Of a stretch of DNA of 64,000 nt, positions 1 to 549 are shown in pieces. The stretch is from Cupriavidus respiraculi (GTDB lineage Bacteria > Pseudomonadota > Gammaproteobacteria > Burkholderiales > Burkholderiaceae), in contig NZ_CAJZAH010000007.1 in assembly GCF_914271545.1 (NCBI RefSeq), forward strand, positions 1 to 64,000, read 5' to 3'. The position numbers and the translations under genes were made by a program. The notes beneath the pieces were generated by a model, which saw nothing but the letters and a program-made list of their open reading frames with translations, was not told where the DNA came from and made no database searches. Numbering within the stretch: the stretch's first letter is position 1; every line of letters begins with the position of its first letter.

Positions 1-387
1 CTTGGTCAGGTAGCCGGACGCGCCAGCGCGGATCAGGTTGATCGCGTACTGGTCCTCCGGGTAGGTGGACAGGATCAGCACGGGCAGGTCGGGGTAGCGT
101 TGGCGGATCAGGTTGATCGCGTACTGGTCCTCCGGGTAGGTGGACAGGATCAGCACGGGCAGGTCGGGGTAGCGTTGGCGGATCAGCTTCAGCACGTCGA
201 TGCCGTTGCGGTCCGGCATCGAGATGTCGAGCACCACCACGTCGAACTCGCTCTCGCGCAGCCGCGTCATGACTTCGTCGCCGCTGGCGGCTTCGCCCTC
301 GACGCGGATATCGGGCTCGTCGGAAATAAACTGGCGCAGACCGGCGCGGACGATCTGATGATCGTCGGCGATCAAAACGCGAATCAT
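1..387 (-). CDS. NarL/FixJ-type response regulator, receiver domain (partial, runs off the window)
   Basis: The visible 129 residues are a CheY-like receiver domain. The acidic pair is Asp8-Asp9, the phosphoacceptor is Asp54 in VVVLDISMPD, the switch Thr is in LILSTYPED, and the conserved Lys falls in GASGYLTK. The output domain lies beyond base 1; family resemblance suggests a LuxR-type DNA-binding domain, but it is not seen here. The ATG at 387 has a good ribosome site (GGGAGAACTCC). The striking oddity is that residues 70-94 and 95-119 are identical, encoded by an exact 75-bp tandem duplication. The segment from loop beta3-alpha3 through beta4 and alpha4 is therefore present twice, and the conserved Lys sits at 129 rather than about 104. 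This should disturb the receiver fold. Partner kinase and targets are unknown. Confidence 0.9.
   Translation of the reverse strand, partial: MIRVLIADDHQIVRAGLRQFISDEPDIRVEGEAASGDEVMTRLRESEFDVVVLDISMPDRNGIDVLKLIRQRYPDLPVLILSTYPEDQYAINLIRQRYPDLPVLILSTYPEDQYAINLIRAGASGYLTK
31..180. repeat. Exact 75-bp in-frame tandem duplication inside a receiver domain
   Basis: Bases 31-105 and 106-180 are identical. On the coding (minus) strand the 9-mer CTGATCCGC stands at each edge of the unit, so it occurs three times at 75-base intervals (codons 68-70, 93-95 and 118-120). Short direct repeats of this kind are typical endpoints for slippage or RecA-independent duplication. The unit is 25 codons, so the frame is kept. 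It could be a genuine recent mutation, a reversible switch or an assembly artefact. Confidence 0.97.
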
Positions 388-518: not shown

Positions 519-549
519 GAAAAAAAGGGACGGCCGAGCCGTCCCTTTT
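519..549 (-). terminator. Rho-independent terminator after metH
   Basis: An 8-bp perfect stem (GGGACGGC, loop CGA, GCCGTCCC at 527-545) is followed on the minus strand by a run of T residues (A run at 519-526 on the plus strand). It lies 34 bases past the stop of the downstream metH gene. A shorter T run on the plus side gives weak bidirectional potential. Confidence 0.85.

What the first reader, a model, noticed from the sequence alone, without database searches (positions are those of the whole stretch)
31..180. Exact 75-bp in-frame tandem duplication inside a response regulator receiver domain
Residues 70-94 and 95-119 are identical at the DNA level, doubling the beta4-alpha4 part of a receiver domain. 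CTGATCCGC occurs at both edges and the middle, which explains formation by slippage and predicts easy reversion. This could be an inactive or altered regulator selected in this strain, a reversible on/off switch (from memory, a reversible tandem duplication in phcA is reported for Ralstonia solanacearum), or an assembly error.
Basis: partly seen in the sequence, partly recalled or inferred. Interest (0 to 1): 0.78.

Follow-up and report, generated by a model that had tools for sequence, protein, structure and literature searches.

The report
Repeated stretch in a bacterial regulator
A gene for a bacterial signalling protein carries a fresh, exact 75-letter repeat that examined relatives lack, and the way the genome assembly breaks there hints that the sequenced culture may have held cells both with and without it; this is a known kind of mutation, seen here in an unusual place.

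Summary
In detail: window 28-186 is an exact 75-bp tandem repeat (84 of 84 positions match), in frame, doubling 25 residues in the receiver domain of a NarL/LuxR-type response regulator in a Cupriavidus near C. gilardii. The gene is cut there, and its C-terminal part lies at the end of contig C2, which ends in an exact copy of window 1-111. Seven contig-end pairs share exactly 111 bp and none more, pointing to a de Bruijn assembly with k=111. In a synthetic graph test a pure two-copy genome does not break at k=111; a one-copy plus two-copy mix breaks at exactly the base where C2 ends. So one-copy sequence was probably in the assembler's input, from a mixed culture or from wrongly merged read pairs (simulated: up to 11% of edges). 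Merging one-copy reads never gave two copies. All 67 parsed orthologue loci have one copy; the two copies are identical although near relatives differ by 7-16% in this unit, so the event is recent. Best reading: a recent microhomology/slippage duplication, probably unfixed, probably spoiling phosphorylation control. No evidence for an evolved switch.

The parts
1..387 (-). N-terminal 129 residues of a NarL/LuxR-type response regulator (start codon at 387); runs off the contig start. The rest (L002 1180-1500, minus strand) is at the end of contig C2.
   Evidence: ORF; Pfam Response_reg 105.3 bits, two stretches; C2 piece has Response_reg end and GerE HTH
28..186 (-). Whole exact tandem repeat, period 75 bp (two units plus 9 bp)
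   Evidence: TRF; 84 of 84 matches
106..180 (-). First copy in reading order, codons 70-94 (end of alpha3, beta4, alpha4 by homology; the secondary-structure names are recalled)
31..105 (-). Second copy in reading order, codons 95-119, identical to the first
178..186 (-). Direct repeat CTGATCCGC (codons for Leu-Ile-Arg), first
103..111 (-). Direct repeat CTGATCCGC, middle (novel junction)
28..36 (-). Direct repeat CTGATCCGC, last
1..111 (+). Overlap with the end of contig C2 (C2:1582348-1582458); its right edge is the base after which one-copy and two-copy sequence would differ
226..228 (-). Codon of Asp54, invariant in the 35-sequence alignment; presumed phosphorylation site
   Evidence: role recalled for receiver domains
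1..3 (-). Codon of the invariant Lys, residue 129 here, 104 in AU9028

Best explanation
A recent in-frame tandem duplication of 75 bp, formed by slippage or microhomology-mediated joining between two 9-bp direct repeats (CTGATCCGC, both coding Leu-Ile-Arg in the same frame), is present in the sequenced DNA and most likely not fixed: cells with one and with two copies were both in the culture. The extra 25 residues push the invariant Lys from 104 to 129 and insert an extra strand-helix unit between the phosphorylatable Asp54 and that Lys, which most likely ruins phosphorylation-dependent control of the regulator while leaving its DNA-binding domain in frame. Shown: the duplication, its frame, the 9-bp repeats, single-copy orthologues, the 111-bp contig overlap and its position. 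Inferred: slippage as the mechanism, the mixture of cells, loss of control. My odds: duplication really in the DNA 0.9; both forms in the cells 0.55; regulator control spoiled 0.7.
For: Exact identity of copies over 84 bases while the 12 nearest distinct orthologues listed are 84-93% identical in this unit and 88-93% in the preceding 207 bases. One copy in 67 of 67 parsed orthologue loci, 53 distinct DNA sequences; the 68th locus was this genome's own C2 piece. Duplication-junction pattern in 1 of 398 family genomes, this one, against the one-copy exit pattern in 121 of 398 and in 58 of the 59 genus members searched, own included. C2 ends in window 1-111; 7 of 14 reported shared stretches between unmasked contig ends are exactly 111 bp and none is longer, so k=111. 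Synthetic graph at k=111: two-copy only, no break; one plus two copies, left unitig ends 84 bases into the repeat (= window 111), arms of 213 and 138 bp; two plus three copies ends 111 bases in (= window 138), which is not what is seen. mutS and mutL open, no mutator needed.
Against: No reads were available. Wrongly merged read pairs from a pure two-copy library give a one-copy edge share of 0.6-10.8% depending on insert size, so the break does not prove a mixed culture. A one-plus-three-copy mix would end C2 at the same base. C7 runs on through the right-hand branch point without a break, which the bare graph does not predict; I ascribe this to the assembler's path choice, untested. A similar test case in print found no genetic reversion of eight Xenorhabdus lrp mutations tested (PMC6786866, passages; the passages do not list a duplication among the tested ones).
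Confidence: 0.5

Rival explanations
1. The duplication is fixed in the strain (all cells have two copies); the contig break comes from read pairs merged across the tandem repeat at the wrong register, which creates false one-copy sequence.
For: Simulation: with merging at 20 bases or more of exact overlap, a pure two-copy library yields a one-copy edge share of 0.6-10.8% and false merges outnumber right ones at 300-500 bp inserts (622 to 600, 670 to 263, 373 to 45, 22 to 1). From memory, a common pipeline that uses k=111 with 150-base reads also merges pairs by default; the pipeline of this genome is unknown.
Against: Needs a merging step that is not documented here, and false edges must survive the assembler's coverage filters. 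Without merging a pure two-copy library gives none (0 against 9,785).
Confidence: 0.3
2. A maintained reversible switch: the in-frame Leu-Ile-Arg repeats make cells flip this regulator between one-copy (responsive) and two-copy (unresponsive or constitutive) forms, a selected form of phase variation.
For: The two Leu-Ile-Arg sites are exactly 75 bp apart in 67 of 67 parsed orthologues, so any slip between them stays in frame; the break pattern allows both forms in one culture. Precedents by title: 661-bp duplication in a two-component gene of Pseudomonas tolaasii, phcA of Ralstonia solanacearum (reference lists).
Against: The 9-bp identity is kept in only 7 of 53 distinct orthologues (8 bp in 20) and no relative shows the duplication: no sign of selection for switchability. 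The even spacing follows from the conserved fold.
Confidence: 0.12
3. The two-copy form is not in the cells: a library or assembly artefact.
For: The repeat lies at a contig edge, where assemblies are least reliable, and no second assembly of the strain was available.
Against: At k=111 the two-copy path needs reads across the new junction; merging one-copy reads yielded no two-copy sequence. A pure one-copy genome gives no break.
Confidence: 0.06

Closest known systems
Spontaneous tandem duplications in global regulators, e.g. lrp of Xenorhabdus nematophila (PMC6786866, passages seen)
   Same: Tandem duplications of 26-116 bp inside a regulator gene, 3 of 25 distinct mutations, arising and selected in culture
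   Different: There phenotype and selection were measured, and the authors judged the lrp mutations not reversible; here neither was measured, and this one is in frame in a two-component receiver domain
Phenotypic switching in Pseudomonas tolaasii by a 661-bp duplication in a two-component sensor gene (Han et al. 1997; title seen in reference lists; details recalled)
   Same: Duplication inside a two-component gene
   Different: 661 bp against 75 bp; sensor against response regulator; switching shown there, not here
phcA alterations in Ralstonia solanacearum
   Same: Regulator gene of a related genus altered in a way reported as reversible
   Different: phcA is a LysR-type regulator (title), not a response regulator
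208.6-kb RecA-dependent duplication in Burkholderia thailandensis that activates the BfmSR two-component system (PMC12124856, passages seen)
   Same: Tandem duplication bearing on a two-component system in mixed populations
   Different: Whole genes duplicated between IS elements, raising dosage; here 75 bp inside one gene

Membership tests
NarL/FixJ-type response regulator | Receiver domain at the N-terminus | tested here: met
   PF00072, 105.3 bits, but split into two overlapping stretches by the duplication
NarL/FixJ-type response regulator | LuxR-type (GerE) DNA-binding domain | tested here: met
   PF00196 in the piece on contig C2, 56.4 bits; the two contigs were not joined
NarL/FixJ-type response regulator | Usual spacing between the phosphorylatable Asp and the conserved Lys | tested here: not met
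   Asp54 to Lys: 75 residues here, 50 in AU9028
UvrY/SirA/GacA response regulators | Score over the curated NCBIfam cut-off (280 bits) | tested here: not met
   Best named model for the C2 piece, 116.8 bits over 143 aa, below cut-off; the query is only part of the protein
Reversible tandem-duplication switch in a regulator | Exact tandem duplication within the coding sequence | tested here: met
Reversible tandem-duplication switch in a regulator | Both copy-number forms in one population | tested here: inconclusive
   Break position fits it but read merging can mimic it
Reversible tandem-duplication switch in a regulator | Precise reversion with change of phenotype | not testable with these tools
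   Needs culture or reads
Simple-sequence-repeat contingency locus | Many copies of a short unit | tested here: not met
   2.1 copies of 75 bp
Fixed domain architecture with an enlarged receiver | Two copies in orthologues | tested here: not met
   0 of 67 parsed orthologue loci; junction pattern only in this genome, 1 of 398. The pattern would miss junctions of the Leu-Ala-Arg type found in Ralstonia

The most novel reading that the evidence does not exclude
A built-in 25-codon toggle: because helices 3 and 4 of this receiver both end in Leu-Ile-Arg, coded 75 bp apart, slippage between them adds or removes exactly one strand-helix unit without ever breaking the frame, so cells flip a genus-wide conserved two-component regulator between a signal-responsive and a signal-deaf (or always-on) form, and the sequenced culture was caught with both.
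Probability: 0.12. Interest if true: 0.65.

Novelty: new member of a known kind. Interest (0 to 1): 0.38.

Why it matters
Small exact tandem duplications inside regulators are an underrated source of quick, possibly reversible change. Here the assembly itself carries a readable trace: with the k-mer size inferred from contig ends, the exact base of a contig break tells which copy-number forms the assembler saw. The same check could be applied to other draft genomes, provided read merging is ruled out. If the mixture is real, the conserved in-frame Leu-Ile-Arg pair would make receiver domains natural places for clean, frame-preserving slips.

Tried and rejected
Pattern for INLIRQRYP in the genus hit 1 of 60 but tests little, since relatives have RQRHP, RQRKP or RQRLP; replaced by a broader pattern. 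A gene name by literature was not reached: RqpR (listing only) and EmbR/BmfR of Rubrivivax (PMC3684757, passages) were considered; EmbR is 245 aa and lies beside bchG-bchP, so no orthology was shown. Hairpin-promoted slippage: weak, z -1.34 to -1.69, with 20, 9 and 14 of 200 shuffles folding as well. Mutator strain: mutS and mutL are open without stops. A within-assembly control (another exact tandem repeat of similar length assembled without a break) was sought in 1,256,000 bases and not found; the nearest is an imperfect 72-bp-period array in L211 with exact runs of 45 and 44 bases. Promoter and terminator scan of 1-1200: none found. Structure of the two-copy receiver: not obtained. PMC11868660 (review of phase variation) has no occurrence of duplication, tandem or direct repeat. 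PMC7694096 mentions tandem duplication, but not in phcA. Literature searches; 'in-frame duplication' with 'receiver domain' and 'response regulator' gave 0 papers.

Full report
What is there. The repeat is real in the given sequence: TRF reports 28-186, period 75, 100% matches, and 84 consecutive bases equal those 75 positions on. On the minus strand the ORF from 387 reads through both copies. Pfam sees a receiver domain split into two stretches. In frame, residues 70-94 recur as 95-119, and the invariant Lys is at 129 instead of 104. The 9-mer CTGATCCGC, coding Leu-Ile-Arg, lies at both outer edges and the middle.

The contig edge. The window is contig C7 from base 1. C2 (1,582,458 bp) ends in an exact copy of window 1-111. 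The piece on C2 carries the end of the receiver and a GerE DNA-binding domain, in frame to its stop. No other match to that piece in this genome exceeds 46% identity in the rows listed (the list was cut), so I see no second copy of this regulator. I compared the 400-base ends of all 18 contigs; five (C14-C18) read N there and say nothing. Among the other 26 ends, 14 pairs share a stretch; 7 of these are exactly 111 bp, 7 are 62-93 bp, none is longer than 111. This is what a de Bruijn assembly with k=111 leaves. Only C2 to C7 (111) and C11 to itself (85) are direct end-to-start overlaps. That k=111 fits a common pipeline for 150-base reads is from memory.

What the break means. At k=111 the 84-base repeated stretch is shorter than k, so a genome with two copies only should assemble through. 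In a synthetic graph (random letters, same lengths) it did: one unitig. A mix of one and two copies gave four unitigs, the left one ending 84 bases into the repeat, which is window 111, exactly where C2 ends; the arms were 213 and 138 bases. Two plus three copies ended 111 bases in, window 138, which is not seen; one plus three ends at the same base as one plus two. A break falling on that base by accident is of the order of one in millions (inference). So one-copy sequence was very probably in what the assembler was given. One point does not follow from the bare graph: C7 runs through the right-hand branch point unbroken; I ascribe this to path choice and did not test it.

The caveat that limits the claim. 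If read pairs were merged before assembly, a pure two-copy library makes false one-copy reads: share of one-copy edges 0.6% at 200-base inserts, 5.2% at 250, 9.9% at 300, 10.8% at 350, 7.3% at 400, 3.2% at 500; none without merging (0 against 9,785). The reverse does not happen: one-copy reads gave no two-copy sequence (0 of 54,165 spanning pairs; 0 against 11,383 edges). Hence the two-copy form was most likely in the DNA, while the one-copy signal has two possible sources.

Age and relatives. The C2 piece has a match in 60 of 60 genomes of the genus. Of 68 orthologue loci with DNA in hand, 67 could be parsed (the 68th is this genome's own C2 piece); all 67 have one copy, with the two Leu-Ile-Arg sites 75 bp apart; they make 53 distinct sequences. 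Outside the extra copy the protein differs from AU9028's at one residue (Tyr for His in RQRHP, in both copies), yet the DNA differs at 18 of 207 and, in the unit, 10 of 75 positions. The copies differ from each other at 0 of 75. The duplication is therefore recent. The junction pattern YAINLxRQR occurs in 1 of 398 family genomes (this one), the one-copy exit in 121 of 398 and in 58 of 59 genus members, own included. The junction pattern would miss Ralstonia-type Leu-Ala-Arg junctions.

Mechanism of formation. A 9-bp direct repeat at the breakpoints is the signature expected of slippage or microhomology joining (established knowledge). Exact 9-bp identity of the two sites occurs in 7 of 53 distinct orthologues and 8 bp in 20, so others could do the same. 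Hairpins are weak and mutS and mutL are open. In 1,256,000 bases of this genome no other exact tandem repeat of comparable length exists; in 896,921 bases around relatives' loci two shorter ones do, periods 20 and 54.

Likely effect. The gene lies beside a single receiver-domain protein and, in opposite orientation, an open CHASE3-HisKA_3-HATPase_c kinase, 80% identical over 437 residues to that of AU9028; metH lies upstream. The kinase being open suggests that the pathway is not decaying. The extra unit sits between Asp54 and the Lys that reads phosphorylation, so I expect loss of phosphorylation control; whether the regulator is then off or always on cannot be told.

Known precedents. Tandem duplications of 26-116 bp are 3 of 25 lrp mutations in Xenorhabdus; the authors tested eight isolates with distinct lrp mutations and found no genetic reversion (PMC6786866, passages). 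Titles only: Han et al. 1997 for P. tolaasii, Poussier et al. 2003 for phcA. PMC12124856 (passages) describes a far larger duplication. The finding is thus a new member of a known kind, with an unusual forensic handle on population mixture. My overall view: duplication in the DNA 0.9, both forms in the culture 0.55, control spoiled 0.7, evolved switch about 0.12.

Noticed in passing
G000 contig C11 (40,342 bp), both ends (L017, L035): The two ends share an exact 85-bp overlap, not the 111 bp of the other contigs: perhaps a circular replicon or a phage with terminal redundancy.
   Followed up: no
L073 3197-5749 (minus), Cupriavidus sp. AU9028: An 850-aa ORF with pentapeptide repeats and a SopA_C-like domain sits between metH and this regulator gene in AU9028; the window genome has only about 195 bp between the two ORFs.
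   Followed up: partly
L002 601-1131 (minus), contig C2: A protein with only a receiver domain lies just downstream of the duplicated regulator; AU9028 has a similar one.
   Followed up: partly
window 521-549: Inverted repeat GGGACGGC-CGA-GCCGTCCC with A and T runs between metH and the regulator, terminator-like by eye on the minus strand; the consensus scan reported none.
   Followed up: partly
L211 11177-11350: Imperfect tandem array of period 72 bp with exact runs of 45 and 44 bases in the same genome.
   Followed up: no
L151 1698, Methylobacter MAG: Exact tandem duplication, period 54 bp (59 matching bases), in a relative's locus; gene not examined.
   Followed up: no
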